The position numbers and the translations under genes were made by a program. DNA of 64,000 nt from Tuwongella immobilis. Lineage in GTDB: Bacteria; Planctomycetota; Planctomycetia; Gemmatales; Gemmataceae. Positions 8,748 to 27,926 of this stretch are shown here, one piece after another; the first letter of the stretch is position 1, and every line of letters begins with the position of its first letter. The DNA lies in NCBI RefSeq assembly GCF_901538355.1, contig NZ_LR593887.1:3324920-3388919 (forward strand), in the 5' to 3' direction. The notes under the pieces were generated by a model. It was given only the letters and a program-made list of their open reading frames with translations. It searched no databases and was not told where the DNA came from.

Positions 8748-9009
8748 AGCTGTCAGTCCTTCATGGTCCGTCCGGATCGCCAACGCGTGCGCAGTCTGTC
8801 TGCTGTAGATATGCACGATGAGTGCGCTCGACGGACAATCTCTTGCAGCTTTTTCTGGGAAGTCTTGGCAGTTGTCAGCCGGAAAAATCGATTCTGCAGA
8901 TCGTGCTCAGTTTATGGGGGAACCTCTCATCAATTGAAATGAAATTTCGACCATGCGAACGATTAGAAACTGTGGCGAAGTCGCGCGGACGGTTGCTATA
9001 AATGGGGCA

Positions 9010-10365: not shown

Positions 10366-12084
10366 ATGGCACCATTGAACGCATTTACCACCGTCGGCCA
10401 ATCCCCGGCGCAACTCGGCTTCGTGCCGAAATTCCGTTCCCATCCGATCGGAACCTGGAGTGCCGATGGCTCCGGAATCGTCCTGTCCGATGTGCAGCAA
10501 CTTTCATCAATCCAACAGACGATTGCGCGGATTTCGGAAGGTTTGGCGATTGTACAATCCGACCGTGGAATTGAGTTGTTCCGCGCTGGCCAGGGGAGTT
10601 TCGGGGCGGCACCGGACCGCGTCAATTGTCTGCCGCTGCTCGCCTATTTGCCGCCGCTTTCGCTCCGAAACCTTGGCAGCAGCGAGTTTTGCGACGATTA
10701 CGGGATTCGCGTCCCCTATGTGACCGGCTCGATGGCCAACGGGATTGCATCCGTCGAAATCGTTCAAGCGATTGCACGAGCGGGAATGCTCGGATTCTTT
10801 GGCGCGGCCGGTCTCTCACTGGCGGCCATCGAAGTCGCCATCGAACGATTGCAAACCAGTTTGGGCGACACCCCATTTGGCATCAATTTGATTCACAGCC
10901 CAAATGAGATGGGCCACGAACGCGACACCGTCGAATTATTCTTGAATCGTGGGATTCGACTAATCGAGGCATCTGCGTTTCTCGATTTGACCTTGCCGGT
11001 GATTCGCTACCGCTTGGCGGGCATCCATCGCGACTCGCAAGGCAAAATCGTGACGCCAAATCGAATTCTGGCCAAAGTCAGCCGAATCGAAGTCGCGACC
11101 AAATTCCTATCGCCACCGCCCGAACGATTTGTGCGCGAACTGCTCGAATCGCGAATCATCACCCCCGAACAAGCGGAACTCGCCAAGCAGATTCCCGTCG
11201 CACAAGACATTACGGTCGAAGCCGACTCCGGCGGACACACCGACAATCGTCCGGCGATCACGTTGTTTCCCACCATTGTTGCCCTCCGTGATCGAATGCA
11301 ACCGCTGTACGGGTCAGCCTTTCCGCTTCGGATCGGCTTAGCTGGCGGCATCGCCACACCACGATCCACGAGCGCCGCGTTTGCCATGGGGGCGGCATAT
11401 GTGGTCACAGGATCGGTCAATCAAGCGTGTGTCGAATCAGGCAGTTCGGATGTGGTTCGAGCAATGCTCGCCCAGGCCGAACAAGCCGATGTCATCATGG
11501 CCCCTGCGGCCGACATGTTCGAGATGGGTGTCAAAGTTCAAGTGCTCAAGCGTGGATCGATGTTTGCCATGCGTGGTGCGAAACTGTACGAACTCTATCG
11601 CACCTATCCGAGTATCGAATCGATCCCCGAATCCGAACGACTGACACTCGAAAAACAGTTGTTTCGTGCGCCACTCGAAGAAATTTGGCAACAAACCATC
11701 GCCTATTTCCAACAACGCGATCCCGCGCAAGTACAACGCGGACTTGCAGATCCGAAACACAAAATGGCGTTGGTGTTCCGCTGGTATCTCGGGCAATCCT
11801 CCCGCTGGGCCAACCGCGGCGATGCCACCCGAAAACTCGATTACCAAGTCTGGTGCGGTCCGGCCATGGGTGCGTTCAATGAATGGGCCAAAGGTTCGTT
11901 CTTGGAACAACCTAAACAGCGTGATGTTGTGACGGTTGCCTGGAATCTCTTGTTCGGGGCCGCAATCGTGGCCCGTGAAACGCAGTTGCGTGCCGCCGGT
12001 CTCGACCTCCCCGCGCACTACTACCCGACACACCCCCAGACGCTGGCAGAACTGCAGCCACTCGTTCCGGAGATGTCCGCATGA
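10366..12084 (+). CDS. pfaD: PfaD-like FMN enoyl reductase of a PUFA-type lipid synthase
   Basis: This 572-residue protein matches PfaD, the stand-alone enoyl reductase of bacterial omega-3 PUFA synthases (nitronate-monooxygenase-like TIM barrel with FMN). Typical segments are VPYVTGSMANGIASVEIV, MLGFFGAAGL, GINLIHSPNEMGHE and EADSGGHTDNRPAITLFPTI. RIGLAGGIATPRS and GAAYVVTGSVNQA follow, with a C-terminal region around NRGDATRKLDYQVWCGPAMGAFN. It reduces the trans-2-enoyl bond on the ACP-bound chain in cycles that go to saturation. It is the first gene of the seven-gene set, and its TGA overlaps the next ATG (ATGA at 12081). The order reductase-PfaA-PfaC resembles the pfa1-pfa2-pfa3 order described in myxobacteria. 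Confidence 0.9.
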   Translation: MAPLNAFTTVGQSPAQLGFVPKFRSHPIGTWSADGSGIVLSDVQQLSSIQQTIARISEGLAIVQSDRGIELFRAGQGSFGAAPDRVNCLPLLAYLPPLSLRNLGSSEFCDDYGIRVPYVTGSMANGIASVEIVQAIARAGMLGFFGAAGLSLAAIEVAIERLQTSLGDTPFGINLIHSPNEMGHERDTVELFLNRGIRLIEASAFLDLTLPVIRYRLAGIHRDSQGKIVTPNRILAKVSRIEVATKFLSPPPERFVRELLESRIITPEQAELAKQIPVAQDITVEADSGGHTDNRPAITLFPTIVALRDRMQPLYGSAFPLRIGLAGGIATPRSTSAAFAMGAAYVVTGSVNQACVESGSSDVVRAMLAQAEQADVIMAPAADMFEMGVKVQVLKRGSMFAMRGAKLYELYRTYPSIESIPESERLTLEKQLFRAPLEEIWQQTIAYFQQRDPAQVQRGLADPKHKMALVFRWYLGQSSRWANRGDATRKLDYQVWCGPAMGAFNEWAKGSFLEQPKQRDVVTVAWNLLFGAAIVARETQLRAAGLDLPAHYYPTHPQTLAELQPLVPEMSA

Positions 12085-15000
12085 ATGCCTCACAATCGAC
12101 CGTCCCCGAGGCTCCGGTTCCCTTAGCCATCGTCGGACTCGGCTGCTTATTTCCAGGATCGAACCATGCGACGGCCTTCTGGGCGGATATCAAGCATGGG
12201 GTCGATCGCATCCGCGAAATTCCCGCAACCCATTGGAATGTCGACGATTACTTCGATTCCAACCCCAAAGCCCCCGACCGAACCTATGCTCGGCGTGGCG
12301 GGTTTTTGGACCCCGTACCGTTCAATCCGATTGAATATGGAATTGCTCCAACTGCAATCGAAGCGACGGACACTTCACAATTGCTCGGGCTGGTCGCAGC
12401 CCGTCAAGCGCTCGTGGATGCGGGCTATGGACCCGATCGATCGTTTGACCGCAATCGTGTCAGTGTGATTCTCGGCGTCACGGGAACGCTCGAACTAGTG
12501 ATCCCGCTTGGCGCTCGGCTGGGTCATCCGCATTGGAAGCGTGCACTGGAAGAAGCGGGGGTCGATGCGGAGACGGCTGCCGATGTCGTGGCCCGAATTT
12601 CCGAATCGTATGTGCCCTGGCAGGAAAATTCATTTCCCGGCCTACTCGGCAACGTCGTGGCTGGTCGGATCGCTAATCGGCTTGATCTTGGCGGCACCAA
12701 CTGCGTGGTCGATGCCGCATGTGCCAGCTCGTTGAGCGCGATCCACTTGGCAGGCTTGGAGTTAGCAGCGGGACGAAGCGATGTGGTCGTGACCGGAGGT
12801 GTGGACACCTTCAACGACATTTTCATGTACATGTGCTTCAGCAAAACCCCGGCTCTTTCGCCTAGCGGAAACTCTCGACCATTCGAATCATCGGGAGATG
12901 GAACGATCCTCGGTGAAGGTCTCGGCATGATCGTCCTCAAACGATTGAGCGATGCTCAACGAGATGGCGATCGTGTTTATGCCGTTCTCAAATCGGTCGG
13001 ATCGTCGAGTGATGGCAAGGGGAATGCGATTTATGCCCCCTCGTCAAAAGGTCAGATGAAGGCGTTGCATGCCGCCTATCGACTGGCAAATATCGACCCT
13101 CGAACAATCGAACTTGTCGAAGGGCACGGCACCGGAACTCGAGTCGGCGATAGTGTCGAAGCCGCTGCTTTGGTCGACGTGTATCGCCAAGCGCAAGCCG
13201 AAGGTACTTGGTGTGCCTTGGGTTCCGTCAAATCGCAAATCGGCCATACCAAAGCGGCGGCGGGTGCAGCGGGGATCATCAAGGCTGCCCTGGCACTCTA
13301 TCACAAGGTGTTGCCGCCGACGTTGAAAGTCGAGATGCCCGTGGAGACGCTGACTCCGGGCAAGACACCCTTTTATGTCAATACTCGCAAGCGACCATGG
13401 CTACCACGATTGGAGCATCCGCGTCGTGCTGCGGTGAGTTCGTTCGGATTCGGTGGCAGCAATTTCCACCTGGTTTTGGAAGAAGCCGACCAGCAGAAAT
13501 CGTCCCCGGATTGGGATGATCAGATCCAGATTCTTGCGTTTTCCGGCGCGAATGCCGATGAGATTCTGAAGCAGATTGAATCGTTCCCCTCAGCGAAGGA
13601 TTGGACGGCGGTTGCTCATGCAGCCGTCGCATTACGAACGCAATTTTCGCATGAACACCCGATCCGACTGACTGGAGTGCTCTCGATTCATTCGGAGCAA
13701 CCCGATCGCTGGAAACAGGTTGCGATCGGCTTGGTGCAAGCGAATACTCCAGCATCACAATCGCCTGATGGCTGGACCGTTGTTCGCGGACCGCGTGTCG
13801 GGAAGCTGGCCATGGTTTTCCCAGGCCAAGGTTCTCAATACGTCGATATGCAGTGCGATCTGGTTTGTCAATTTCCGCAAGCCCTTGATGCAATTGCGGT
13901 TGCGAATCAGGCACTGGGATCACTGGTGCAAGGAACGATTCCCGAACGCCTCAGCGATCTGATCTATCCGCATCCCGCATTCACGCCGGAAGTCGAACTC
14001 GCACAAGCAGATCGGCTTCGCCAGACCCAGCATGCTCAACCAGCCATCGGTGCTTCGAGTGTCGCAATGTTGGCCGTCCTCCGCGATTTCGGTGTTGAGC
14101 CGGAACTGGTGGCCGGTCATTCATTCGGCGAACTCACCGCGCTGCACGCCGCCGGAGTGCTTGACAATCAGGCACTCATCCGACTGTCTCGATTGCGTGG
14201 CGAGCTAATGGCACAAGCCGCCCAATCGGCGCAAGGTGATGCCGGATCAATGCTTGCGGTGTTAGCTCCCTGGGAATTAATCGAGACGATCATTCGGGAA
14301 GAGAATCTCGACGTGGTCGCTGCCAACAAGAATGGGCCGCAGCAAACGGTTCTCTCCGGAAGCACCCCGGAAATTGATCGATCGGAACGAGTATTCAAAC
14401 GTCGGCAAGTGCGTGTTTCTCGGTTGTCGGTTGCAGCGGCATTTCATAGCGAACGGGTATCTGCCGCCGCGATTCCATTCCGCAATGCGTTGGAATCATT
14501 GGACTTACGGCAGCCGCAGATTCCCGTCTTCTCCAATTCGACCGGACAAGCCTACCCAGCAGAAATGGGTACCGTCAAAGATCTGCTCGGATCGCAACTG
14601 GCGAAGCCCGTTGAGTTTGTGTCGATGATCCACGCGATGGGACAAGCCGGAGCGGGTGTCTTTCTCGAAGTCGGACCGGGCTTCACCCTCACGCGATTGA
14701 TTCAATCGATCTTGCCCACGAGCGTTGCGATTGCGACCGACAGCAGTAGCGGTAAACGCTCTGGAATTCACGACTTCGCGATGGCATTGGCTCAGTTGGC
14801 CGCACGCGGAATTCCCGTTCGTTTGGATCGATGGAATCCCAAGCCTGCCACGCCGTTGCCGACCGATGCCGAAAAGAAGGCGTTCACGATTCCATTGTGC
14901 GGCGCGAATTATGTGACACCGCGCGAAAAACGCCCCGCACGCCCCCCGATTGCAAGCCGTCAGAATTCCGAACCTGTGACGGTGACGCCGGGAGCAGTTG

Positions 15001-18000
15001 CGGCGGACTCTCGCAACGTTGTTCAACCGACAACGCCGATGTCGGCCAATCCAGCGCCCATGCCTGCGGTGGTTTCCCGCAATCCGACGCATGTGGCGGC
15101 AAAAGCTGTTTCACCGCAACCTCAAGTTTCCCAACGGGTTCCGACGGTTCTTCCGAAGGCACCCCAACCGACGATTTCGCAACCGCCGACCCATTCACCG
15201 AGTTCTTTCCCAAGGTCGCCGATGAGTGTTGATCCAAACGCAGTTCCCTTTGCACTGCAAGTCACGCAGCAAAGCCTGCTCGCATTCCAACGAATGCAAG
15301 AGCAAACGGCCCAACTGCATCGCCAATTTTTGGAACATCAGCAGTCTGCTCAACTGACTCTCCAGTCGCTGGTTGAGCAACAGCAAGCTCTGTTATTCCA
15401 AGGGGTTGCGCTGCCTTCGCTGCCTGCCGCTCCTCGAACCGTAGCAGTGGTTCCTCCGGCATCGCTGCCCGCGCCGATGGCGGCCCCAGTGCCTGCTCCG
15501 GTTTCGATCCCGGCCATTCCTCCGGCTCCGGTGCGAGCAGCCGTTCCAACGCCAGTCGCTCCAACAATCGCCAAACCGTCGATTCCGCCAGCCCCGGCTG
15601 CCGTCCCTGCTCCGGCTGTGGCAACCCCTCCAGTGGTGAAGACCGCGGCGGTCGTTGCCCCAGTGGTCACTGCGCAACCCCAAGCGGTGAAAGCAGTTCC
15701 GGCAACTCCTCCGGCAGCTTCAAGCTCCGCTGTTCAGACAACCTTGTTGTCGGTTGTCGCGGAGAAGACGGGTTACCCATCCGAGATGTTGGATTTGAGC
15801 ATGAGTTTGGACGGAGATTTGGGCATCGACTCGATTAAGCGAGTCGAGATCCTCTCCGCGCTCCAGGAAAAACTCCCCAACGCTCCAACCGTCAAGCCAG
15901 AGAATCTGGGGAGTCTGCACACCCTCCAAGATATCGTCAATTTCTTGGGCGCGGCCGTCGCCACACCGACTCCCACGACAACAGCCGCACCGACTTCGTC
16001 CGTTCCGGCGGCGACTCCGGCACCAGTCGCTGGTGAAGTGCAAGGGACGCTCCTGTCAGTGGTTGCGGAAAAGACGGGTTATCCATCCGAGATGTTGGAT
16101 TTGAGCATGAGCTTGGACGGAGATTTGGGCATCGACTCGATTAAGCGAGTCGAGATCCTCTCCGCGCTCCAGGAAAAACTCCCCAACGCTCCAACCGTCA
16201 AGCCGGAGAATCTGGGCAGTCTGCACACCCTCCAAGATATCGTCAATTTCTTGGGGATGAACACTGGTGCAAGCGTCGTTTCGCCTGCCGCAACTGCTTC
16301 GGGAGGGCCCCCCAACCACCCTACCCAGCGGCTCGTGCTGAAGGCGGTCGCGGGACTGCCTGAATCACGAGCCGAGATCGCCATCATCGATGAAGCCCCG
16401 ATTTGGCTGGTGGGGAATTCGTCCATTGTGCACCATCTCGCGGATGCGTTCCGGGCGATTGGCCTGGAGCCGACGCTCCTCGATTGGTCTTCGCCGCCGC
16501 CCAGCATGGCGACGCTGGCGGGGTTGATTCTGATCGGCGGCGACTCCGATCCGTGTCGATCGGTCCTGCCCTGGTTGCAGGCGGCATCGTCGGCATTGAA
16601 AAACGGTGCTCAGCGAGGCACGCCGATTGTTGCCAGTTTGACGACCATTGACGGACAATTCGGTCTATCCAACGATCGCACACCAATGAGCCCTGCGACA
16701 GGTGGACTCGCGGGGGCGATCAAAACTCTGGCGTTTGAATGGCCATTTGCCTTGTGCAAAGCCATTGATCTCTCACCGACATTGACCGCAACCCGCGAGT
16801 TGGCGAACGAAATTGTCAACGAATTGCGTCGCGTCGGGCCACAAGAATCGGGCCGATCCGAATCGGGGTGGAGCTACCTTGGCTTGGATTCGGAGCCACG
16901 ATCGGTCGAACAACGATTACCGCTTCGCCCATCGGATGTCGTGCTCGTGACGGGTGGCGCACGCGGGGTGACTTTCGCTTGTGCCCACACGCTCGCAGAA
17001 CGATATGGCTGCACGATCATTTTGGCCGGGCGAACCCCACCTCCGGGTGAAGAACCAACGTGGCTGCAAGCGGCAATCGATGAACCATCGATCAAACGTG
17101 CGATTAGTCAAAATGAACGGGGGATTTCACCCCGCGAAATCGGCGAGCGTGCCAATCGCGTCCTTGCAGAGCGTGAAGTGCGTGCGAATCTGCAAGCGAT
17201 TCGTTCGACCGGATCGCGAGTCGAATATGTGTCCATGGATGTTGCCGACGCGAAATCGGTGGCATCGGCGATTCAGCAGATTCAGAATCAGCTTGGCGCG
17301 ATTTCTGGACTGATTCACGGGGCGGGAGTCCTCGCAGATCGGCGAGTCGAAGACTTGACACGCGAGCAAATCGAGCGTGTCTATTCGACGAAGGTCGATG
17401 GCTTCCACGAACTCTTGCGCAATCTCGATCCATCCGCGTTGAAAGTGCTGGTCGCATTCTCGTCATCCACCGCGCGATTTGGTCGCACCGGCCAACTCGC
17501 CTATGCGATGGCGAACGAAGTGCTCAACAAATCGTTGCAGCGATTTGCCAAAGACTATCCCCACTGCAAGTGTCTGTCGCTGAACTGGGGACCGTGGGAA
17601 GGCGGCATGGTCACGCCCGGCTTACGGAAACTCTTCGAGTCCGAAGGCGTTGGCCTGATTCCACTTGCGTCAGGTGCCCAATTCCTAGCCGATGAGCTTG
17701 CCGTGGCATCGGGACCAGTCGAAATTGTGATTTTGGGCGAAGGGACCGCACCAGTGGCACCCATCTCTCAAATTCAAGCGATGATGCCGGGTGAGGCGTC
17801 TTCGCTCGAAACGCAGCCGCTCGCGAATGGGATGGCGAAATCGTTCGATCGTCTGATCGATATCGAGTCGCATCCGATTCTTCGATCGCATGTCCTGGAT
17901 GGGAAAGGGGTTCTGCCGCTTGCCCTGCATTTGGAGTGGCTGGCACACGGAGCGATTCATCGCAATCCGGGCCTTTTATTCCAAGGAGTGGACGAACTTC

Positions 18001-18695
18001 GTTTACTCCAGGGTGTGAAGATTGCCGAAGCGCAATCGCTGACGGTGTCGGTATTTACGGCCAAAGCGGTCCGTGAAGATGGTGTGTATCGCGTCCCCAC
18101 CGAATTGCGATCGATTCGCGCGGATGGTCGAGAGGTGCTCCACTCGCGCGCGACGATTGTGCTCGGGAGCCTCTTGCCGGATGCACCGGCGGCCCAGCAG
18201 CTACCGCAATTGCAAGCATATCCCCAATCCGTGGAAGAATGTTATCGCTTTACGCTGTTCCATGGCGAATTGATGCACGGCATCGAAGCCCTGGACGGCT
18301 TTTGCGATGATGCGGTGGCGGCCTCGGCGAAATGTGCCCCGGCGCCATCGGCCTGGCTAACGCGGCCGATCCGCTCGAATTGGTTGGCCGACCCGTTATT
18401 GCTCGATGTCGCCTTCCAATTGCTGATTGTGTGGAGCCGACAACGTCACGGTGCGGGTTCATTGCCCACGAGCGTGGCCAGTTATCGGCAGTTTCGGAAG
18501 CATTTCCCGCCGGATGGCGTTCGCCTCCTGGTACGAATTATCCATGATACCGGATCGATGGCGCGAGCGCGGATCGATTTGGTCGATCGGAGCGGTCAAC
18601 TGGTCGCCCGATTGGATGGGGCGGAATGCGTCATCGACGCCAAGCTGAACGAAGTCTTTCGACATAATCAGCTTCGCCCAATGGTCGGAATTTGA
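12081..18695 (+). CDS. pfaA: PfaA-like multidomain lipid synthase: KS-AT-ACP-ACP-KR-DH
   Basis: This is a 2204-residue iterative type I synthase. Its domains in order are: KS, about 14-470 (DAACASS with Cys214, EGHGTGT, SQIGHTKAAAG); AT, about 575-880 (VFPGQGSQY and GHSFGE with Ser681); and a Pro/Ala linker with a Gln-rich helical piece, about 1055-1115. Next come ACP1 and ACP2 (LGIDSIKR with Ser1251 and Ser1353), then KR, about 1610-1860 (VTGGARGVTFA and a C-terminal Ser/Tyr region around AFSSSTARFGRTGQLAYAMAN). A DH-type domain ends the protein, about 1925-2190, with HVLDGKGVLP (the HxxxGxxxxP signature, His1937). This is the PfaA plan, with only two ACPs where marine PfaAs commonly have four to nine. 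It would load malonyl units, extend and reduce. It overlaps pfaD by 4 nt and is followed 16 bp later by the PfaC-like gene. Confidence 0.92.
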   Translation: MNASQSTVPEAPVPLAIVGLGCLFPGSNHATAFWADIKHGVDRIREIPATHWNVDDYFDSNPKAPDRTYARRGGFLDPVPFNPIEYGIAPTAIEATDTSQLLGLVAARQALVDAGYGPDRSFDRNRVSVILGVTGTLELVIPLGARLGHPHWKRALEEAGVDAETAADVVARISESYVPWQENSFPGLLGNVVAGRIANRLDLGGTNCVVDAACASSLSAIHLAGLELAAGRSDVVVTGGVDTFNDIFMYMCFSKTPALSPSGNSRPFESSGDGTILGEGLGMIVLKRLSDAQRDGDRVYAVLKSVGSSSDGKGNAIYAPSSKGQMKALHAAYRLANIDPRTIELVEGHGTGTRVGDSVEAAALVDVYRQAQAEGTWCALGSVKSQIGHTKAAAGAAGIIKAALALYHKVLPPTLKVEMPVETLTPGKTPFYVNTRKRPWLPRLEHPRRAAVSSFGFGGSNFHLVLEEADQQKSSPDWDDQIQILAFSGANADEILKQIESFPSAKDWTAVAHAAVALRTQFSHEHPIRLTGVLSIHSEQPDRWKQVAIGLVQANTPASQSPDGWTVVRGPRVGKLAMVFPGQGSQYVDMQCDLVCQFPQALDAIAVANQALGSLVQGTIPERLSDLIYPHPAFTPEVELAQADRLRQTQHAQPAIGASSVAMLAVLRDFGVEPELVAGHSFGELTALHAAGVLDNQALIRLSRLRGELMAQAAQSAQGDAGSMLAVLAPWELIETIIREENLDVVAANKNGPQQTVLSGSTPEIDRSERVFKRRQVRVSRLSVAAAFHSERVSAAAIPFRNALESLDLRQPQIPVFSNSTGQAYPAEMGTVKDLLGSQLAKPVEFVSMIHAMGQAGAGVFLEVGPGFTLTRLIQSILPTSVAIATDSSSGKRSGIHDFAMALAQLAARGIPVRLDRWNPKPATPLPTDAEKKAFTIPLCGANYVTPREKRPARPPIASRQNSEPVTVTPGAVAADSRNVVQPTTPMSANPAPMPAVVSRNPTHVAAKAVSPQPQVSQRVPTVLPKAPQPTISQPPTHSPSSFPRSPMSVDPNAVPFALQVTQQSLLAFQRMQEQTAQLHRQFLEHQQSAQLTLQSLVEQQQALLFQGVALPSLPAAPRTVAVVPPASLPAPMAAPVPAPVSIPAIPPAPVRAAVPTPVAPTIAKPSIPPAPAAVPAPAVATPPVVKTAAVVAPVVTAQPQAVKAVPATPPAASSSAVQTTLLSVVAEKTGYPSEMLDLSMSLDGDLGIDSIKRVEILSALQEKLPNAPTVKPENLGSLHTLQDIVNFLGAAVATPTPTTTAAPTSSVPAATPAPVAGEVQGTLLSVVAEKTGYPSEMLDLSMSLDGDLGIDSIKRVEILSALQEKLPNAPTVKPENLGSLHTLQDIVNFLGMNTGASVVSPAATASGGPPNHPTQRLVLKAVAGLPESRAEIAIIDEAPIWLVGNSSIVHHLADAFRAIGLEPTLLDWSSPPPSMATLAGLILIGGDSDPCRSVLPWLQAASSALKNGAQRGTPIVASLTTIDGQFGLSNDRTPMSPATGGLAGAIKTLAFEWPFALCKAIDLSPTLTATRELANEIVNELRRVGPQESGRSESGWSYLGLDSEPRSVEQRLPLRPSDVVLVTGGARGVTFACAHTLAERYGCTIILAGRTPPPGEEPTWLQAAIDEPSIKRAISQNERGISPREIGERANRVLAEREVRANLQAIRSTGSRVEYVSMDVADAKSVASAIQQIQNQLGAISGLIHGAGVLADRRVEDLTREQIERVYSTKVDGFHELLRNLDPSALKVLVAFSSSTARFGRTGQLAYAMANEVLNKSLQRFAKDYPHCKCLSLNWGPWEGGMVTPGLRKLFESEGVGLIPLASGAQFLADELAVASGPVEIVILGEGTAPVAPISQIQAMMPGEASSLETQPLANGMAKSFDRLIDIESHPILRSHVLDGKGVLPLALHLEWLAHGAIHRNPGLLFQGVDELRLLQGVKIAEAQSLTVSVFTAKAVREDGVYRVPTELRSIRADGREVLHSRATIVLGSLLPDAPAAQQLPQLQAYPQSVEECYRFTLFHGELMHGIEALDGFCDDAVAASAKCAPAPSAWLTRPIRSNWLADPLLLDVAFQLLIVWSRQRHGAGSLPTSVASYRQFRKHFPPDGVRLLVRIIHDTGSMARARIDLVDRSGQLVARLDGAECVIDAKLNEVFRHNQLRPMVGI
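15765..15949 (+). repeat. ACP-coding direct repeat, copy 1
   Basis: About 185 bp encoding acyl carrier protein 1 (pantetheine-site Ser1251, codon 15831-15833). By eye it differs from copy 2, 306 bp downstream, at only four positions. The linker between the copies is Ala/Pro/Thr-rich and not repeated. Confidence 0.95.
16071..16255 (+). repeat. ACP-coding direct repeat, copy 2
   Basis: Second, nearly identical ACP unit (pantetheine-site Ser1353). The four differences I count from copy 1 (ACC/ATC, AGT/AGC, CCA/CCG and GGG/GGC contexts) look silent or nearly so, so the two proteins are essentially the same domain. Confidence 0.95.
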
Positions 18696-18711: not shown

Positions 18712-21700
18712 ATGCCGCCGTTGGATGAACGCATTGCAATCGTGGGCCGGGGCGGGTTATTCCCCGGCTCAACGACATTGGATCAGTTTGCAGCGCATCT
18801 CCTTGCCGGGACTGATCTTTCGTCGGATGTCCCTACGGGTCGATGGACGCTCGATCCGGAGCGGGCCGTCGATTCCCGACCGGGACAATTCGATCGCGTG
18901 GTTTCCAAACGAGGGTACTTCCTCTCCCCATTTGAATTGCCGGACGAAGATCTGGGATTCGATCGGGCGTTTCTTCAGCAGTTGGATCCACTCGTCCAAC
19001 TGGCGATTACCGTCGGCTGGCGAGCCTGGCAGGATGCGAATGGCCAGGCGATCAATCCCCAAAAAACCGGAATCATCGTCGGCAACATCGCTCTGCCGAC
19101 GGATCGAATTTCGGAGTGGACTCGTGAGGTGCTTCGTTCGCATCTCCCGGCCTATTCAGGCTTTGCGCCGAATCAGCCAATCAACCCGTTGAATCGATAT
19201 GTTGCGGGTCTGCCCGCAATGATGCTCGCACAAACGCTGCGGATTCAGGGGCCCGTTTGGACGTTGGATGCCGCATGTGCGTCCTCGCTCTATTCGGTCA
19301 AACTGGCGTGCGATTGGCTGCTTTCTGGCCAAGTCGATGCGATGATTTGCGGCGGCATGTCTCGCCCCGATTGTCTGTATACCCAGATGGGGTTCAGCCA
19401 ACTTCGGGCACTTTCGCCCACCGGAACGTGTTCCCCATTTGATTCCAAATCGAACGGTTTGGTTGTCGGCGAAGGCGCAGGACTCTTTGTACTGAAACGA
19501 TTATCGAGCGCAATTGCTGATGGCAACACGATTTACGGCGTCATCTGCGGCGCAGGTCTTTCCAATGATCGTGATGGCAATTTGCTCGCTCCATCATCCG
19601 AAGGTCAGCTTCGTGCGATGCGGGCCGCCTATGCGCAGGCGGGGTGGTCGCCCGATTCGGTGGACGTGATCGAGTGCCACGCCACCGGAACGCCACGCGG
19701 CGATGCTGTGGAATTCGCCAGTCTCCGCGAACTTTGGTCTGGCATCGGTCGAACTGGACAATGCGTCATCGGTTCGGTCAAATCATCAACTGGGCATCTA
19801 CTCACAGGTGCAAATTCTGCGGGGTTGATGAAGTTATTGCTGGGAATCGAAACCGGCAAATTGTATCCGACCGCGAATTATCAAAGTCCCTCACAAGCGA
19901 TTCCAATCGATGGAAGTCCTTTCCGAGTCTTGACTTCGGCTGAAGATTGGCCAAAATCCGCGAGTCATCCCCGACGTGCGGCCATTAGCGGATTCGGCTT
20001 CGGCGGCATCAATGCCCATGTGCTGCTGGAGGAATATCGGCCTGAATTGGTCCGTGTTCCAGTCCGCATGTCCACACCGCCAGCCGAGGAGCCGGTCGCC
20101 ATCGTCGCCATGGGGTTGCGACTGGCCGGGGAAGAATCGTCTCGCGAATGGCAATCGATTTTGCTCGGTGGGCGCCCCGGACCGCAACCCGTTTGTCGTG
20201 ATGGAGTTGGGTTCGCGGATCAGCGGCCATGCTTGGGGTTCACGAATCTCTCCGTTGGCGTGGAGCGGTTCCGAATTCCGCCAAGCGAAATCGAGCAGAT
20301 GTTGCCGCAGCAAATCGTATTGCTGCAGGCAACCGATCTCGCGTTGCAGCAACTGCAAGCCACGACGACGGTTACGGAACATTCCGTCGATCCGGAATCC
20401 CTGGCCATTCGTACCGGCACGTATGTCGGTCTTGGCTTGGATATTCAGACAACGAACTTTCAGATGCGTTGGTCGCTGTTGCAACAAGGTGCCAGCGCCA
20501 GCGAAATTGAATCCGCCTCGCCGCCGCTGACCCCGGATCGGACTATGGGCGCACTTGGCAGCGTGGCCGTGAGTCGTATCGCGCGGACGTTTCGACTCGG
20601 CGGCCCGTGTTTTCCGGTCTGTAGCGAAGATGCCTCCGGCACTGCCGCGCTGCTGACCGCGATGCAAGCCCTGAAACGACGCGAGATTGATCGTGCGATC
20701 GTTGCAGCCGTTGATCTCTCCGCCGACCCACGAATGGTCGCCGCCGATGCTGCGTTGGCTCAGGGGGCACCTCGACCCGTGCCGCTGGAGGGGGCGATTG
20801 CCTTCGTCATCAAGCGCGTGTCCGACGCGGAGCGGGACGGCAATCGGATTTTGGCGGTGATCGAGTCTGCCGCGCAAGCCCAATCCTTCCAAGGGGTTTG
20901 GGATGCGATTGCGCCAGAATCGGAAGCCGTCGAATCGATTGGATACATTGACGATTGTGGCCCCAACTCCCTGCCCCAACCGCCCAGTCTGCCCCGATTG
21001 CCGCATACTCCCGATCGTGCGGCCATTTATTCACATACTGCTTCGATCATCGGTTTTCCGGGGGCGGCTTCGACGTTATTGAGTTTGGCGCGGGCGACGC
21101 TGGCGATTGCGCAGCAGGTGATTCCTGCGGGGCAGTCGTTACTCGATGCCAGCCAACGACTTCCGGCGTACTGGGTTGCCGATGATGCGGGCCAACCGCG
21201 TCGAGCGATGGTGATCGGGTGCGGGCTGGCGGATTGCTATTCTGGCATTCGGTTGGCCGAACATCCAAGCGAAGCCACCACGAATCGGGACGATCGCTGG
21301 TTTCCGTTGGGCCGCCGATTGCCGCGACTGTTTGTGTTCTCGGGTGCAACGCTCGCCGAGCTGATGCAGTCGGTCGATTTGCTTCGCTCGCAAGTCGAAT
21401 CTGGGGTTGAGTTTGCGGCATTGAACGCTGGTGATTCCCATCCCGCGAATTCGCCCCAAAGCGTTGTGGCGACCTGTGTTGCGGAAACGGTCGCGGAATT
21501 GCGCGAGCAACTCGCCTTCCTCGTGCAACATCTGCGAACTGCTCCGGATGCCCCGATTGGGCGCGATGAGACGCTGGGCAAACCGATGCCGGTGGCGGTT
21601 CGGGATCGCGTGTTCTACACCCCTCGCCCGTTGGGGCCAAGCGCGCGGATTGCGTTTGTCTTTCCGGGGTCGGGAAATCACTTTGCGGACATGGGGCGCG

Positions 21701-24700
21701 ACCTGAGCGCGACTTTCCCGGAGATTTTGCGGACTCAGCAGGCCGAAAATCGGCGTTTGCGGACACAGATGGCGGTTGATGAGTTATGGCGTCCGCGTTT
21801 GTCAGCGGAAATCGCGCCGCGAACGCTCATCTTCGCGCAAGTCTCCCTCGGCGCGATGATTGCTGACTTGTTCCAATCGTTTGGGATTCGGCCCAGTGCC
21901 GCGATCGGATATTCGCTGGGAGAGTCGGCGAGTCTGTTTGGACTGCGAACCTGGCGTGCCCGCGATGCGATGCTTGCTCGACTCGAAGAATCGTCGCTGT
22001 TTGTGCACGATCTCGCCGGTCCGTGTCTTTCCGCGCGACGCTATTGGAACATGAGTGAAGATGAGCCGCTGGATTGGGTGGTTGGCATCGTCCGGACGGG
22101 TGCCCAGGCGGTTCGAGCGGCGTTGCTCCCTGAATCCAAGGCATTTTTGCTGATTATCAACACTCCGGAAGAATGTGTCATCGGCGGCCATCGCCCCGAT
22201 GTGGAAGCGCTGGCGGCGCGTCTCGAGAAACGGCTGTTGCCAATCGACGGGGTCACGACGGCCCATTGCGCTGTGACCGGGCCGATCGAGGAACCGTATC
22301 GGGAATTGCATCGATTGCCCACAACTCCGCCGTCGGGCGTCGATTACTACAGTGGGGCGACTGGGCAGCGGTATGCGGTGGACACGGAGTCGGCCTCCGC
22401 GGCGATTTTCGGGGCGGTGAATTCGACCATCGATTATCCGCGTCTGATCGAACAAGCCTATGCGGATGGGGTTCGGATCTTTTTGGAGCCGGGACCGGGT
22501 GGGTCGTGCGCCCGATTTATTGATCGGATTTTGAACGAAAAACCGCACCTCGCCCGCGCCGTTTGTGTACCGCGGCAGGATCATCGATCGCTCTTGGTTC
22601 GCATGCTGGCGAATCTGATTGCGGAGGGGATTCCAGTCGATTGTTCCCCGCTGTTTCGGCAATCGCCGGAATGGACGTTACCCGTTTCCCGCAATCGAGT
22701 TACGGTCCCAGTCGGCTTGCCGATTCGTCCGTTGGCGAACCTTGCCGCGAAGCCGGTGGAATCGCGCCCGGAACCGCGTTCGGAACCGCGCCCGGAACCG
22801 ATCATCGTCCCGCCAGTGATTCCCGCAAGCGTGGTCGATTTGACACCGCCGAGTGCAAGCGCGCCACGCCTGGCATCCCCTCCGCCGTTGGTCGAAAATT
22901 CGGTCAAATTGGCGGATGAGCGAGCGGCAACTGCACTGTTTGATGCGACTCCGGAATCGACGAAGCCGAGTTGGTCGCCCGAGCCGAGCACGCCAAACGC
23001 ATCAGCCGCCGACGATGCAATCACTGCGGAATTTGAGTCAAAATTCGAATCTCCCCCTGCACTTTGCTCCGATTTGCCAGCGGAATTGGAAGATCCCATG
23101 GTTGAACGACGTCCGCAATTGCCCGCGCTCAACGGTGAAATCCGTGCCGAGGCGATGGAAATTCCGCAAACCGGCCACCCCGTTGAAGCGGTGGTGCAGC
23201 AGATTCAGGGCCATGCGGAGACGCAACTGGCGGTGATGCAGGCACATCTGGCGTACTTGAGTTTTAGTACGCAGATGCAGCAGCAATTCGCCCGGCTGGT
23301 GCAGATGCAAACGCAACTGCTGCAAGGAAATGCGCTGCCCACGATGCCGCAAGTCGCACAGCCGCAAGTCGCACACCCGCAAGTCGCACACCCGCAAATG
23401 GCGATTGTTTCACCGCGTGACATCTCCCCGGAAATCGTCGATCAGCCGATGAGCATTGCGCAATTGCAACTGAATCCGGACGCGGTCAGCGAACTGGTCG
23501 CCCCGCTGACCGTGCCAGAGGAGACGCCACGGGCATTGGATACGGCCCAATGTTTCGAGTTTGCACGCGGTTCGATTGCGAAATCGCTCGGGGTTGCATT
23601 CGCGGAGATTGATTCGTTCCCGACTCGTGTTCGACTCCCGGATGGCCCCTTGATGCTGGTCGATCGTGTGCTGCAAATCGACGGCGAGCCGTTGAGTTTG
23701 GGCAGCGGTCGGGTGGTGACGGAACACCTCGTAACGGCGGATCGATGGTATCTGGACGCCGGGCGGATTCCGATTTGCGTGGCGGTGGAATCGGGGCAAG
23801 CGGACTTGTTTTTGAGCGGATTTCTGGGAATCGACCTGCGAACGCGCGGCTTGGCCGTGTATCGGTTGCTCGACGCCGTGGTCACGTTCCATAGTCCATT
23901 GCCGGGAATCGGATCAACAATCGTTTATGACATTCATATCGATCGATTCTTCCAACAGGGCGAAACCTACTTATTCAAATTCCGATTCGAAGCATCGGTT
24001 GATGGCCGCCCGCTGATGAGCATGACCGAAGGATGCGCGGGCTTTTTCAGCGAGTCGGAATTGGCCGCGGGCAAAGGGATCATCCATACCGCATTGGACT
24101 TACGACCGATCGCCGGGAAACGGCCCGCCGATTGGCGACCGCTCGCTCCACTGGGCGGAATCGAAGCATTCAACGAACTCCAAATCGATGCGTTGCGATC
24201 GGGCGATCTGGTGACCGCATTCGGGAGTGGATTTGCGGGTTTGCCGCTGCGTTCCCCCAACCGCTTACCCGGTGGGATGTTACGACTCGTGGACCGTGTC
24301 GTGGAATTCGATCCGCAGGGTGGTCGGTTCGGATTGGGCCGCATTCGGGCCGAGGCGGATATTCACCCCGACGACTGGTTTTTGACCTGTCACTTTGTGG
24401 ACGATCAGGTGATGCCCGGCACACTCATGTTCGAGTGTTGCATGCACACCCTGCGCATTTTCTTGATGCGATTGGGCTGGGTTGGCGAAGAGGGGCAGAT
24501 TGCGACCGAGCCGGTGCCGGGGGTTTCCAGTCGGTTGAAATGTCGCGGGCAAGTCATTGCCAGCACGAAGATTGTGACCTACGAAGTGGCGATCAAGGAG
24601 ATTGGCTACGGCCCTGAACCATATGCGATTGCCGATGCGTTGATGTCTGCCGATGGCAAGCCGATCGTCGAAATCACCAGCATGTCGATTCGCATCAGTG

Positions 24701-25851
24701 GCTTGACACGCGAATTCGTCGAATCGATTTGGCAGCACCAAACTGCGGCGATTCCGGCAGTGCGCTACGACCAACGCCCGGCGATTTTTGATACCGATCG
24801 CATCACCGCGTTCGCAATCGGGAACCCTTCGGATGCCTTCGGTGATCGCTATCGGATCTTCGATTCGGAGCGGATTATCGCGCGGCTCCCCGGACCGCCG
24901 TTCCAATTTTTGGATCGGATCACCCGCATTGATGGAGCGCGAGCGTGGGAGATGGTCGCCGGGGGCGAGGTTGATGCCCAATACGATGTGCCAACCGATG
25001 CCTGGTACTTTGGTGCGAATCGCTGCCAGCGGATGCCGTTTGCGGTGCTGCTGGAAATCGCGTTGCAACCCTGCGGCTGGTTGGCTGGGTATGTCGGATC
25101 GGCGTTGACGAGTTCAGATGATTTGTCGTTCCGAAATCTCGGCGGCTCGGCCACGCAATACGAAGCGATCGGCCCGGACTGTGGGACGCTGACCACCACC
25201 GTGAAGATGACTCGTGTCTCCAGCTCCGGTGGCATGATTATTCAAAATTATGATTTCACCGTAAGGCGGGAAGGCCGGGTCGTTTATGCGGGGGATACCT
25301 ACTTCGGTTTCTTCTCCAAAGGGGCGCTTGCGAATCAGGTTGGCTTGAAGGAATCTTCGCTGGAAGTCCCATCGCCAGAAGCACTTGCGTTAGCGGACCG
25401 ATTCCAAGTTCCGAATGATTCACCATTTCCAGATGACACGCTGCGGATGGTCGATACAATTGAGTTCAATCTCCCAACAGGCGGCTCGAAAGGGCTTGGA
25501 TTGATTCAAGGGACAATCGCGGTCAACCCCGAAGCGTGGTTCTTCAAAGCCCACTTCCATCAAGACCCCGTTTGGCCCGGCTCGTTGGGTTTGGAGTCGA
25601 TGCTCCAATTGTTGAAGGTCTTCGCTTGGCAACGATGGGGTACCGTTCCCCCCACCGGCTGGCAAACTGTCGCCATCGGCAAACGACACGAGTGGGTTTA
25701 CCGCGGCCAGGTAATTCCGACTCAAAATCGAGTGACCGTGCAGGCGACCATCACGGCAGTGGATGATGAACATCAACGCATTCAGGCAGATGGATTCCTG
25801 ATGGTCGATGGTCGGATCATCTACGCGATGAAAGATTTCACCCTGGAATGA
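18712..25851 (+). CDS. pfaC: PfaC-like multidomain lipid synthase: KS-CLF-AT-(hotdog dehydratase)x4
   Basis: This is a 2379-residue synthase. KS, about 5-445, has DAACASS (Cys189), CHATGT and STGHLL. A second KS-like domain, about 460-830, is the chain-length factor: the active-site position reads CSEDASGT, with Asp640 where Cys is expected. An AT, about 975-1290, follows (FVFPGSGNHF, GYSLGES with Ser1068). A linker with a Gln-rich helical stretch, about 1495-1545, leads to four FabA-like hotdog domains, about 1620-2379. Hotdogs 2 and 4 keep the catalytic histidine (CHFVDDQVMPG, His1894; AHFHQDPVWPG, His2281). Hotdogs 1 and 3 lack it, giving two dehydratase pseudo-dimers. The AT is a separate protein (PfaB) in marine gammaproteobacteria. 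No C-terminal acyltransferase or thioesterase is present. Confidence 0.9.
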   Translation: MPPLDERIAIVGRGGLFPGSTTLDQFAAHLLAGTDLSSDVPTGRWTLDPERAVDSRPGQFDRVVSKRGYFLSPFELPDEDLGFDRAFLQQLDPLVQLAITVGWRAWQDANGQAINPQKTGIIVGNIALPTDRISEWTREVLRSHLPAYSGFAPNQPINPLNRYVAGLPAMMLAQTLRIQGPVWTLDAACASSLYSVKLACDWLLSGQVDAMICGGMSRPDCLYTQMGFSQLRALSPTGTCSPFDSKSNGLVVGEGAGLFVLKRLSSAIADGNTIYGVICGAGLSNDRDGNLLAPSSEGQLRAMRAAYAQAGWSPDSVDVIECHATGTPRGDAVEFASLRELWSGIGRTGQCVIGSVKSSTGHLLTGANSAGLMKLLLGIETGKLYPTANYQSPSQAIPIDGSPFRVLTSAEDWPKSASHPRRAAISGFGFGGINAHVLLEEYRPELVRVPVRMSTPPAEEPVAIVAMGLRLAGEESSREWQSILLGGRPGPQPVCRDGVGFADQRPCLGFTNLSVGVERFRIPPSEIEQMLPQQIVLLQATDLALQQLQATTTVTEHSVDPESLAIRTGTYVGLGLDIQTTNFQMRWSLLQQGASASEIESASPPLTPDRTMGALGSVAVSRIARTFRLGGPCFPVCSEDASGTAALLTAMQALKRREIDRAIVAAVDLSADPRMVAADAALAQGAPRPVPLEGAIAFVIKRVSDAERDGNRILAVIESAAQAQSFQGVWDAIAPESEAVESIGYIDDCGPNSLPQPPSLPRLPHTPDRAAIYSHTASIIGFPGAASTLLSLARATLAIAQQVIPAGQSLLDASQRLPAYWVADDAGQPRRAMVIGCGLADCYSGIRLAEHPSEATTNRDDRWFPLGRRLPRLFVFSGATLAELMQSVDLLRSQVESGVEFAALNAGDSHPANSPQSVVATCVAETVAELREQLAFLVQHLRTAPDAPIGRDETLGKPMPVAVRDRVFYTPRPLGPSARIAFVFPGSGNHFADMGRDLSATFPEILRTQQAENRRLRTQMAVDELWRPRLSAEIAPRTLIFAQVSLGAMIADLFQSFGIRPSAAIGYSLGESASLFGLRTWRARDAMLARLEESSLFVHDLAGPCLSARRYWNMSEDEPLDWVVGIVRTGAQAVRAALLPESKAFLLIINTPEECVIGGHRPDVEALAARLEKRLLPIDGVTTAHCAVTGPIEEPYRELHRLPTTPPSGVDYYSGATGQRYAVDTESASAAIFGAVNSTIDYPRLIEQAYADGVRIFLEPGPGGSCARFIDRILNEKPHLARAVCVPRQDHRSLLVRMLANLIAEGIPVDCSPLFRQSPEWTLPVSRNRVTVPVGLPIRPLANLAAKPVESRPEPRSEPRPEPIIVPPVIPASVVDLTPPSASAPRLASPPPLVENSVKLADERAATALFDATPESTKPSWSPEPSTPNASAADDAITAEFESKFESPPALCSDLPAELEDPMVERRPQLPALNGEIRAEAMEIPQTGHPVEAVVQQIQGHAETQLAVMQAHLAYLSFSTQMQQQFARLVQMQTQLLQGNALPTMPQVAQPQVAHPQVAHPQMAIVSPRDISPEIVDQPMSIAQLQLNPDAVSELVAPLTVPEETPRALDTAQCFEFARGSIAKSLGVAFAEIDSFPTRVRLPDGPLMLVDRVLQIDGEPLSLGSGRVVTEHLVTADRWYLDAGRIPICVAVESGQADLFLSGFLGIDLRTRGLAVYRLLDAVVTFHSPLPGIGSTIVYDIHIDRFFQQGETYLFKFRFEASVDGRPLMSMTEGCAGFFSESELAAGKGIIHTALDLRPIAGKRPADWRPLAPLGGIEAFNELQIDALRSGDLVTAFGSGFAGLPLRSPNRLPGGMLRLVDRVVEFDPQGGRFGLGRIRAEADIHPDDWFLTCHFVDDQVMPGTLMFECCMHTLRIFLMRLGWVGEEGQIATEPVPGVSSRLKCRGQVIASTKIVTYEVAIKEIGYGPEPYAIADALMSADGKPIVEITSMSIRISGLTREFVESIWQHQTAAIPAVRYDQRPAIFDTDRITAFAIGNPSDAFGDRYRIFDSERIIARLPGPPFQFLDRITRIDGARAWEMVAGGEVDAQYDVPTDAWYFGANRCQRMPFAVLLEIALQPCGWLAGYVGSALTSSDDLSFRNLGGSATQYEAIGPDCGTLTTTVKMTRVSSSGGMIIQNYDFTVRREGRVVYAGDTYFGFFSKGALANQVGLKESSLEVPSPEALALADRFQVPNDSPFPDDTLRMVDTIEFNLPTGGSKGLGLIQGTIAVNPEAWFFKAHFHQDPVWPGSLGLESMLQLLKVFAWQRWGTVPPTGWQTVAIGKRHEWVYRGQVIPTQNRVTVQATITAVDDEHQRIQADGFLMVDGRIIYAMKDFTLE

Positions 25852-25911: not shown

Positions 25912-27024
25912 ATGAAATACTCGCGCGTGTATCTCGAATCGTTCGGCTACGAACTCCCACCGGTGGTAGTCTCGACCTCGGAATTGGAGTCGAGACTCGA
26001 ACCGCTGTACCAAGAACTGCGGCTTCCGGCCGGGCAACTCGAATTGCTCACCGGGATCAGCGAACGTCGGTGGTGGGAACGCGATTATTCGCTTTCCGAT
26101 GGTGCCACAGCCGCCGCCAAGAAGGCATTGGAATCGGCGCAATTCCCGGCAGATCAAGTGGATATGCTGATCTATGCCGGCGTTTGCCGCGAACAATTCG
26201 AGCCAGCAACCGCGTGCAATGTCGCCGCAAAGCTTGGCATCCATCCGGATGCGACGATGTTCGATTTGAGCAACGCTTGTCTGGGCGTCCTCAATGGCAT
26301 CGTCGAAATTGCCAACCGCATCGAACTGGGACAAGCCCGCGCAGGGATGGTCGTTTCCTGCGAAACGGCCCGCGAAATCAACGAAATCACCATCTCGCAA
26401 ATGTTGCAAGATCGTTCCATCGATCGATTTCGACATTCGCTGGCGACACTCACCGGCGGGTCCGGCGCAGTCGCCGTGCTCGTCGTCGATGAAAAGTATT
26501 CCATGCAGCATCGGCGGAAGCTGCTCGGTGGCGTCACCAAGAATGCGCCGCAACATAACGGCTTATGCCGCTGGGGGTTAGAAGAACTCCCCAAGACGAT
26601 CGAGAAATATCTCGGCTCCGATGCCAGCAGTCTGTTTCGCAATGGCTTGAACTTCGGCTTGGATCATTGCGTGCGCCCGTTTATGGCCACCGATGCCGGC
26701 GCGGTGTTGAAATACGGCGTCGAGTTGGGCCTGCGAACCTGGAAAAGTTTCCAGACGAAGCTCGGCTGGGCCGTGGATTCGTTGGATAAAGTGATCTGCC
26801 ATCAAGTCGGGGCCGGTCACCGCGAAGCGATTTTGCGCACCCTGGGGATCGCCCCGGAAAAAGAATTCTCGACTTATCAATTCCTCGGCAACATCGGCAC
26901 GGTGTCTCTCCCGCTGACCGCGGCGCTGGCAGAAGAACGCGATTTCCTGCGTGCTGGCGACCGGGTTGGCTTTCTTGGGATCGGCAGCGGCCTCAATTGT
27001 CTGATGCTGGGCATTCAATGGTGA
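25912..27024 (+). CDS. oleA: OleA, head-to-head acyl-CoA/acyl condensing thiolase
   Basis: This 370-residue thiolase-superfamily protein is similar to KAS III. Catalytic residues are visible: Cys123 in DLSNACLGVLNG, His in CHQVGAGHREA, and Asn in FLGNIGTVS. The REQFEPATACNVAAKLGI segment contains the glutamate that OleA uses from the partner subunit. OleA joins two activated fatty acyl chains by Claisen condensation to a 2-alkyl-3-keto acid. It follows the PfaC-like gene by 60 bp with no terminator between, and its stop overlaps oleB. Its position suggests that its substrate comes from the Pfa synthase, possibly directly from ACP; that is inference. Confidence 0.92.
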   Translation: MKYSRVYLESFGYELPPVVVSTSELESRLEPLYQELRLPAGQLELLTGISERRWWERDYSLSDGATAAAKKALESAQFPADQVDMLIYAGVCREQFEPATACNVAAKLGIHPDATMFDLSNACLGVLNGIVEIANRIELGQARAGMVVSCETAREINEITISQMLQDRSIDRFRHSLATLTGGSGAVAVLVVDEKYSMQHRRKLLGGVTKNAPQHNGLCRWGLEELPKTIEKYLGSDASSLFRNGLNFGLDHCVRPFMATDAGAVLKYGVELGLRTWKSFQTKLGWAVDSLDKVICHQVGAGHREAILRTLGIAPEKEFSTYQFLGNIGTVSLPLTAALAEERDFLRAGDRVGFLGIGSGLNCLMLGIQW

Positions 27025-27926
27025 TTCCTGATTATCCGTTCGAGTCTCACTACTTCGATCGCAACGGCCTTCGCATGCACTACCTCGATGAGGGGGGCGG
27101 CGATCCAGTAGTGATGGTTCACGGAAACCCGACATGGTCGTTTTATTTTCGTCATTTGGTCCTTGCACTTCGGGACCGACATCGCGTCATCGTACCGGAT
27201 CACATCGGCTGCGGCTTATCCGATCATCCGGATCAGCATGCCTACGATTTTCGGCTCCAATCGCGGATTGACGATCTGGATGCCCTGCTGGAATCGCTGA
27301 ATTTGCCGAATCGCGTCACGTTGGTCGTTCACGACTGGGGTGGCATGATCGGCATGGCCTACGCAGCCCGTCATCCGGAGAAGATTCGTCGGATTGTCGT
27401 GCTGAATACGGCATCGTTTCATATGCCGAAATCGAAATCGTTTCCGGCGCTGCTGTGGCTGGGTCGCAATACGGCGTTGGGTGCGTGGCTGATCCTGAAA
27501 TGCAACGCATTTTGCCGGCTGGCGAATCAGATTGCCGCCAAACGACGCCAACTGACGCAGGCGGAAAAGTCGGCGTATCTGATGCCGCATGACACGGTTC
27601 CTCGGCGGATCTCGGTGCTCAAATTTGTGCAGACGATCCCACTTCGCATCAGTGATCCGGGATATGATCTTGTCTCGGCGGTTGAATCATCGCTGCCGAA
27701 ATTTGCCGATGTTCCGATGCTGATCATTTGGGGACTCAAAGACTTCATCTTCGATCATCATTTTCTGGCCGAATGGGAACGCCGGTTTCCAAAGGCGGAA
27801 GTGCATCGATATGCCCGAAGTGGGCACTACATTCTGGAAGATGAACGCGAAGAAGCGATCGAATGGATCGATGATTTCTTCGCACGCCATCCCATACCTC
27901 CTTCGGGAGCGGAGGCTCGGCAATGA
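27018..27926 (+). CDS. oleB: OleB, beta-lactone decarboxylase (haloalkane-dehalogenase-like alpha/beta hydrolase)
   Basis: This 302-residue alpha/beta hydrolase has HGNPTWS near the oxyanion region and the nucleophile elbow VVHDWGGMIG with Asp106. GLKDFIFD supplies the acid and RSGHYILED the His. The Asp nucleophile and HGNPTWS are features OleB shares with haloalkane dehalogenases. OleB decarboxylates the cis-beta-lactone made by OleC to the final cis-olefin. The ATG at 27018 overlaps the oleA stop (ATGGTGA); a TTG at 26997 is an alternative. The protein ends at 27926 with an ATGA overlap to oleC. Confidence 0.9.
   Translation: MVIPDYPFESHYFDRNGLRMHYLDEGGGDPVVMVHGNPTWSFYFRHLVLALRDRHRVIVPDHIGCGLSDHPDQHAYDFRLQSRIDDLDALLESLNLPNRVTLVVHDWGGMIGMAYAARHPEKIRRIVVLNTASFHMPKSKSFPALLWLGRNTALGAWLILKCNAFCRLANQIAAKRRQLTQAEKSAYLMPHDTVPRRISVLKFVQTIPLRISDPGYDLVSAVESSLPKFADVPMLIIWGLKDFIFDHHFLAEWERRFPKAEVHRYARSGHYILEDEREEAIEWIDDFFARHPIPPSGAEARQ

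What the first reader, a model, noticed from the sequence alone, without database searches (positions are those of the whole stretch)
15765..16255. Two ACP units almost identical at the DNA level, only two in total
The 185-bp ACP repeats at 15765 and 16071 differ at about four bases, although they code the same protein and are separated by a unique 120-bp linker. This means a very recent duplication or ongoing gene conversion. PUFA synthases typically carry more ACPs, and ACP number affects output, so this locus may change copy number readily.
Basis: seen in the sequence. Interest (0 to 1): 0.6.

Follow-up and report, generated by a model that had tools for sequence, protein, structure and literature searches.

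The report
Recombining twin carrier domains in PfaA
A bacterial lipid-making enzyme carries two acyl carrier domains whose DNA is almost identical, most likely because recombination keeps copying one onto the other, and in a related species the same kind of exchange has removed one of the two.

Summary
The two ACP domains of a PfaA-type synthase (12081-18695) differ at 4 of 185 bases, and the linker between them is unique. "Very recent duplication" is not supported; recombination between two old copies is. All 12 differing codons of 70 are silent. They pile up at the 5' edge (7 of 8 codons, pS 0.98), while the core is nearly uniform (5 of 62, pS 0.12; Fisher p = 5e-6). The edge is about as diverged as between genera, so the copies look old and only the core homogenised. 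Relatives show the process directly. Three species with alignable inter-ACP linkers have pS 0.00-0.07 within genes against 0.21-0.32 between species. A sister species of one of them has lost one ACP unit, leaving a hybrid ACP1/ACP2. Fragmented assemblies often break inside the ACPs. In other relatives the two ACPs diverge independently, so exchange is common, not universal. Two ACPs is the usual number here (27 of 37 full-length family genes), not a deficit. The cluster is of the Type I pfa-like kind, followed by oleABCD-like genes, probably making a polyunsaturated hydrocarbon. Copy-number change within this species was not testable.

The parts
12081..18695 (+). pfaA homologue, KS-AT-ACP-ACP-KR-DH, 2204 aa
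   Evidence: Pfam; NCBIfam omega_3_PfaA 1467 bits, cut-off 1010
15741..15950 (+). ACP1 (residues 1221-1290, identical in protein to ACP2)
16047..16256 (+). ACP2
15765..15950 (+). homogenised core of ACP1 (62 codons, 5 silent differences, pS 0.12)
16071..16256 (+). homogenised core of ACP2
15741..15764 (+). unconverted 5' edge of ACP1: 7 of 8 codons differ silently from ACP2, pS 0.98
16047..16070 (+). unconverted 5' edge of ACP2
15951..16046 (+). unique Ala/Pro/Thr-rich linker between the ACPs
15831..15833 (+). predicted phosphopantetheine serine codon of ACP1 (DSI motif; the motif's role is recalled)
   Evidence: read
16137..16139 (+). predicted phosphopantetheine serine codon of ACP2
   Evidence: read
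10366..12084 (+). pfaD homologue (enoyl reductase)
   Evidence: TIGR02814 636 bits, cut-off 449
18712..25851 (+). pfaBC-type fusion: KS, PfaB-like acyltransferase region, FabA-like dehydratase stretches
25912..27024 (+). oleA-like thiolase-fold condensing enzyme
   Evidence: 3-oxoacyl-ACP synthase III models; the name OleA rests on position and recalled knowledge
26997..27926 (+). oleB-like alpha/beta hydrolase (haloalkane-dehalogenase family)
   Evidence: best model below its cut-off; the name OleB rests on position
27923..29686 (+). oleC-like olefin beta-lactone synthetase
   Evidence: 653 bits, below the cut-off of 900; PRK09274 712 bits, above its cut-off of 478
29566..30681 (+). oleD-like 2-alkyl-3-oxoalkanoate reductase (ORF start uncertain, homology from residue 42)
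   Evidence: 453 bits, below the cut-off of 580

Best explanation
The two ACPs are an old tandem pair in a PfaA-type synthase that evolve in concert. Their 200-bp direct repeats recombine with each other, which overwrites the well-matched core of one copy with the other and leaves the diverged 5' edge and the unrelated linkers untouched. The simplest form is non-reciprocal gene conversion; cycles of unequal expansion and contraction are a close variant. The same pairing, resolved as a crossover or deletion, removes one ACP plus linker in frame, as seen in a sister-species pair of the same family. Shown: the edge/core contrast in the window; concerted evolution and a hybrid ACP after loss in relatives. 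Inferred: that RecA-type pairing or replication slippage is the agent, and that the two ACPs act in parallel on output.
For: Edge pS 0.98 against core pS 0.12, Fisher p 4.9e-6, 8-codon scan p 0.0004, longest identical run p 0.008. The window core against the ACPs of 9 relative loci (8 genomes: L020 and L132 are one) has pS 0.62-0.93, so silent sites are not constrained. Pooled over 27 arrays with a best pair of at least 90%, 5' edge pS is 0.32, core 0.10, 3' edge 0.21; the 5' edge exceeds the core in 18 of 27. G010, G011 and G027 have pS 0.07, 0.00 and 0.04 within genes and 0.21-0.32 among these three species, with inter-ACP linkers alignable by eye. G012 carries one ACP whose 5' flank and 4 core sites match G010 ACP1 and whose 3' flank matches ACP2; the tree puts G010 and G012 together at 100 with the two-ACP species G011 and G027 next to them. 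Contigs break inside ACPs: 11 of 20 genes truncated at the 5' side (binomial p 7e-7), and 6 of 10 genes cut at the 3' side in a second collection. In 7 of 13 genomes whose two half-gene contigs were paired, the ends overlap exactly by 16-141 bp.
Against: The window has no close relative in the tree (highest backbone identity 51%), so conversion in the window itself rests on the edge/core pattern, whose diverged part spans only 24 bp on one side; the 3' edge is not diverged (pS 0.00). One edge comparison with a relative is not saturated (window ACP2 against G006 ACP2, 0.26). Its middle linker is not recognisably like those of relatives. The weak similarity of the middle to the upstream linker (p 0.006) could be a trace of duplication. 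Several relatives show no exchange (G080/G084/G085, G063/G067, G053/G054). In 6 of the 27 arrays the 5' edge is less diverged than the core (L140, L126, L033, L079, L038, L026) and in 3 both are zero (L146, L179, L174).
Confidence: 0.85

Rival explanations
1. Very recent tandem duplication of an ACP unit in this lineage, with no later exchange.
For: 97.8% identity over 185 bp; the row placed beside the window in the tree, G005 (support 80), has one ACP, although its assembly is fragmented (520 contigs). The middle linker is weakly like the upstream one (p 0.006).
Against: The 24 bp at the 5' edge encode the same eight residues but 7 of 8 codons differ, about as much as between genera. The middle linker is not like the downstream one. 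Two ACPs is the common state in the clade.
Confidence: 0.08
2. The DNA identity is held by selection on the nucleotide sequence itself (codon bias, RNA structure, overlapping signal), not by exchange.
For: All differences are silent, so protein-level selection is strong.
Against: The same core differs from relatives at most silent sites (pS 0.62-0.93 over 9 loci), and paired ACPs of several relatives are near saturation (for example G080 0.77, G084 0.80).
Confidence: 0.02
3. Assembly artefact: the true array is longer, with further near-identical copies collapsed in the assembly.
For: Contigs of relatives often break in the ACPs.
Against: The two copies differ at 12 codons and have different linkers, so they are not one sequence entered twice. 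The genome is one contig, and relatives assembled in one to four contigs carry one or two copies (G010 2, G011 2, G012 1, G027 2, G052 2, G087 2, G023 1).
Confidence: 0.05

Closest known systems
[quoted passage not shown] Gemmata obscuriglobus, Geobacter)
   Same: pfaA with tandem ACPs, pfaBC fusion, association with ole genes; found in a planctomycete and Deltaproteobacteria (section 5 part 1 of 3, section 7, and passages seen)
   Different: Nothing categorical found. This copy has two ACPs and a dehydratase-like domain at the C-terminus of PfaA. The parts read say nothing about exchange between ACPs.
Tandem ACPs of marine PfaA and thraustochytrid OrfA (PMC3585217, PMC5067506)
   Same: Near-identical tandem ACP proteins; number reported to set output (PMC5067506); number varies between organisms, 2-9 (PMC3585217) (abstracts and passages)
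   Different: The enzymes studied there have 4, 5 or 9 ACPs; here there are two. The passages seen treat protein sequence and output, not DNA homogenisation.
Gene conversion between domains of modular polyketide synthases (recalled; only a search listing was seen)
   Same: Recombination between repeated domains of megasynthase genes
   Different: As recalled, it is discussed there for domains across modules; here it concerns adjacent ACPs in one iterative synthase

Membership tests
PfaA (omega-3 PUFA synthase subunit A) | whole-protein match above the curated cut-off | tested here: met
   TIGR02813 1467 bits, cut-off 1010
PfaA (omega-3 PUFA synthase subunit A) | KS-AT-tandem ACP-KR order | tested here: met
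Type I pfa-like cluster | pfaBC fusion with KS, AT and dehydratases in one protein | tested here: met
   KS, PfaB-family region (95 bits, below that family's cut-off of 144) and FabA stretches in one 2379-aa protein
Type I pfa-like cluster | proximal KS in the Type I clade of the KS tree | not tested
   The backbone tree places it among same-family planctomycetes, but reference KS sequences of Types A-T were not included
Type I pfa-like cluster | association with ole genes (proposed in the paper, not strictly defining) | tested here: met
   four adjacent ole-like genes; the OleC- and OleD-specific models and the best OleB-region model score below their cut-offs
Concerted evolution by recombination | copies within a gene closer to each other than to orthologues although the duplication is older | tested here: met
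   in relatives G010/G011/G027; for the window only through the edge/core contrast
Hentriacontanonaene-type olefin producer | polyunsaturated C31 hydrocarbon detected | not testable with these tools
   chemistry needed

The most novel reading that the evidence does not exclude
The tandem ACPs of these planctomycete synthases act as a recombination-set dial. Strong protein identity plus homogenised DNA keeps 200-bp direct repeats about 270-480 bp apart (spacings), so cells in a population switch in frame between one, two and three ACPs and tune lipid output without changing the product.
Probability: 0.12. Interest if true: 0.65.

Novelty: new member of a known kind. Interest (0 to 1): 0.4.

Why it matters
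ACP number has been shown to scale PUFA output without changing the profile (PMC5067506, abstract and passages). A natural process that homogenises and deletes ACPs gives a route by which output can evolve, and a warning: ACP counts from fragmented genomes of this group are unreliable, and trees of ACPs by position mislead where conversion is active. In the listings I saw no paper that describes DNA-level concerted evolution of PfaA ACPs; those searches cover open-licence papers only and I read only the papers cited.

Tried and rejected
Recent duplication was rejected on the edge/core contrast and the linker that is not clearly duplicated. Silent-site selection was rejected because the cores are near saturation between species. 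A within-species copy-number test was not possible: the search by genus returned only the window's own genome. I hoped to show that the window's own middle linker is orthologous to that of relatives; it is low-complexity, and I saw no match by eye and ran no formal test against relatives' linkers, so I claim nothing from it. Full-length PfaA queries to the family search gave no answer twice. A paper on instability of a PUFA cluster in yeast (PMC10540379, passages) concerns promoter repeats, not ACPs, and was set aside. Structure prediction was not used, since the ACP fold is not in question.

Selections made. From the family search (87 of 95 genomes matched) I took 60 loci by hand, the best PfaA-type KR-DH matches; genomes with only fragments or with KR matches of other synthases were left out. 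The wider set is the best 80 loci of a capped list and shares some genomes with the family set. In one search twelve of those loci were left out of the pooled edge/core count because their contigs looked the same as family contigs; other overlaps were not checked. In one search, 37 of the 60 family loci were counted: 20 truncated genes and L142, L152, L160 (gaps or frameshifts) were not. Of the 20 genes truncated at the 5' side, 11 start inside an ACP by HMM match, 4 (L127, L133, L155, L176) start near or just past the end of the array without a match, and 5 elsewhere. The binomial figure takes 138 of 1390 residues as target. Of 15 genomes searched for the missing half gene, 13 were paired; G092 and G048 were not. 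That breaks come from short reads is an inference; sequencing methods were not seen.

Full report
What is there. The window holds a run of same-strand genes: a pfaD homologue (10366-12084), a pfaA homologue (12081-18695), a fused pfaBC-type gene (18712-25851) and four ole-like genes (25912-30681). PfaA reads KS-AT-ACP-ACP-KR-DH. It passes the curated PfaA cut-off with 1467 bits against 1010. The genome is one contig of 6,690,754 bases and the ACP stretch occurs once in it. The host is a planctomycete by its relatives; size and family would fit Tuwongella immobilis, but that name is my recollection and no call confirms it.

The repeat. Two direct copies of 202 nt lie 306 bp apart, 15748-15949 and 16054-16255. 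Over residues 1221-1290 (70 codons) the proteins are identical and 12 codons differ, all silently. The differences are not evenly spread. The first 8 codons (15741-15764 against 16047-16070) differ at 7, pS 0.98; the remaining 62 differ at 5, pS 0.12 (Fisher p 4.9e-6; 7 differing codons in one 8-codon stretch p 0.0004; identical run of 30 codons p 0.008). The 96-bp linker between the copies has no match to the downstream linker (p 0.45). It has a weak match to the upstream one (p 0.006 against simple shuffles), which its Ala/Pro/Thr-rich make-up may explain.

Why not a recent duplication. A fresh tandem copy would carry its edge and one of its linkers with it. Here the edge, which encodes the same eight residues, is about as diverged as between genera: the window's edges against the ACPs of 9 relative loci (8 genomes) give pS 0.51-0.90, with one exception of 0.26 (window ACP2 against G006 ACP2). 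The copies therefore look old and the core must have been made alike later. Silent-site constraint cannot be the cause: the window core against the same relatives has pS 0.62-0.93.

Relatives. The C-terminal half of PfaA was sought in 95 genomes of the family; 87 matched and 60 loci were taken. Among 37 full-length genes, 27 have two ACPs, 8 one and 2 three; some of the ones may be collapsed in fragmented assemblies. In a wider set of 68 genes from public contigs, drawn from a capped best-80 list and partly the same genomes, 27 have two, 21 four, 15 three, 3 one and 2 five. So two is ordinary here. On the backbone tree of 51 rows (a quick tree, in which the window is a long branch) the ACP count in classes 1, 2 and 3 or more needs at least 12 changes. 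Within-gene ACP similarity forms a continuum. In the wider set 12 of 68 arrays, the window included, have a best pair of at least 93% at the DNA level; in the family set 9 of 32 arrays have a pair of at least 95%. For 115 of 199 ACPs in the wider set the nearest ACP lies in the same gene.

Concerted evolution in relatives. In G010, G011 and G027 the linker between the ACPs can be aligned by eye among the three species, so the two-ACP state predates their split. Yet pS within genes is 0.07, 0.00 and 0.04, while among these species it is 0.21-0.32 for every pairing. In contrast, G080/G084/G085, G063/G067 and G053/G054 have ACP1 close to ACP1 and ACP2 close to ACP2 between species (pS 0.06-0.21), with diverged copies inside each gene (0.44-0.80). 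Exchange is therefore common but not universal. Pooled over 27 arrays with a best pair of at least 90%, silent divergence is lower in the core (110 of 1069.5 sites) than at the 5' edge (61 of 188.3) or the 3' edge (32 of 155.5). Array by array, the 5' edge exceeds the core in 18, is below it in 6, and both are zero in 3.

Copy number changes. G012, sister of G010 (support 100) and assembled in three contigs, has one ACP. Its upstream flank and four informative core sites match ACP1 of G010 and its downstream flank matches ACP2. With the two-ACP species G011 and G027 outside this pair, the simplest reading is a loss by recombination within the ACP repeat, in frame, of one unit (spacing 117 codons in G010). 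G016 and G023 against G019 show flanks of the same hybrid kind, direction unsettled. G089 against G087 looks similar in the protein alignment but gives no clean signal at the DNA level, and its assembly is fragmented.

Assembly evidence. Of 60 family loci, 20 are cut by a contig end on the 5' side within the gene; 11 of these start inside an ACP, against about 10% expected from length (p 7e-7). In the wider set 6 of 10 genes cut at the 3' side end inside an ACP. The missing halves were sought in 15 genomes. Of 13 that were paired, 7 have contig ends that overlap exactly by 16 to 141 bp and 6 do not; such overlaps are what assemblers leave at repeats. Near-identical ACPs are thus probably commoner than intact genes suggest, and single-ACP counts from fragmented genomes should be doubted.

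How it works. The ACPs carry the growing chain on a phosphopantetheine arm at the serine of the DSI motif (15831-15833, 16137-16139; role recalled). Published work on other PUFA synthases found output rising with ACP number and the product profile unchanged (PMC5067506, abstract and passages). I infer that the two identical ACPs here act in parallel. Pairing of the 200-bp repeats, by RecA or by slippage at replication, copies the core of one onto the other or deletes one unit. Which agent acts, and how often, is not shown.

What is known. The cluster matches the Type I pfa-like clusters described in Gemmata obscuriglobus and Geobacter, proposed to feed olefin synthesis by Ole proteins (PMC3098273: section 5 part 1 of 3, section 7 and passages). 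The KS-tree test of membership was not done. Near-identity of tandem ACPs at the protein level is on record (PMC3585217 passage). I saw no paper on DNA-level concerted evolution of these ACPs in the listings, which cover open-licence papers only.

Verdict. Conversion is supported, recent duplication is not, and two ACPs is normal for this clade. Copy-number change is real between related species and unknown within this one.

Noticed in passing
window 6751-6935: Array of 12-nt units inside the span of a 1007-aa FG-GAP repeat protein ORF on the minus strand (5793-8816); 12 overlapping register copies reported.
   Followed up: no
window 8953-9747: QueC-like ORF (7-cyano-7-deazaguanine synthase family, 70 bits, below the cut-off of 150) upstream of pfaD.
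   Followed up: no
window 25912-30681: Four ole-like genes follow the pfa genes on the same strand with short gaps or overlaps, suggesting one unit making a polyunsaturated hydrocarbon.
   Followed up: partly
L037 and L048: Two public MAG contigs titled Klebsiella pneumoniae carry PfaA genes that came up beside environmental Gammaproteobacteria; I suspect the titles are wrong, untested.
   Followed up: no
L152 (G094; L083, Zavarzinella formosa, shows the same split frame): The PfaA reading frame is split at ACP1, with a run of 10 N inside ACP1 in L152, probably an assembly gap at the repeat.
   Followed up: partly
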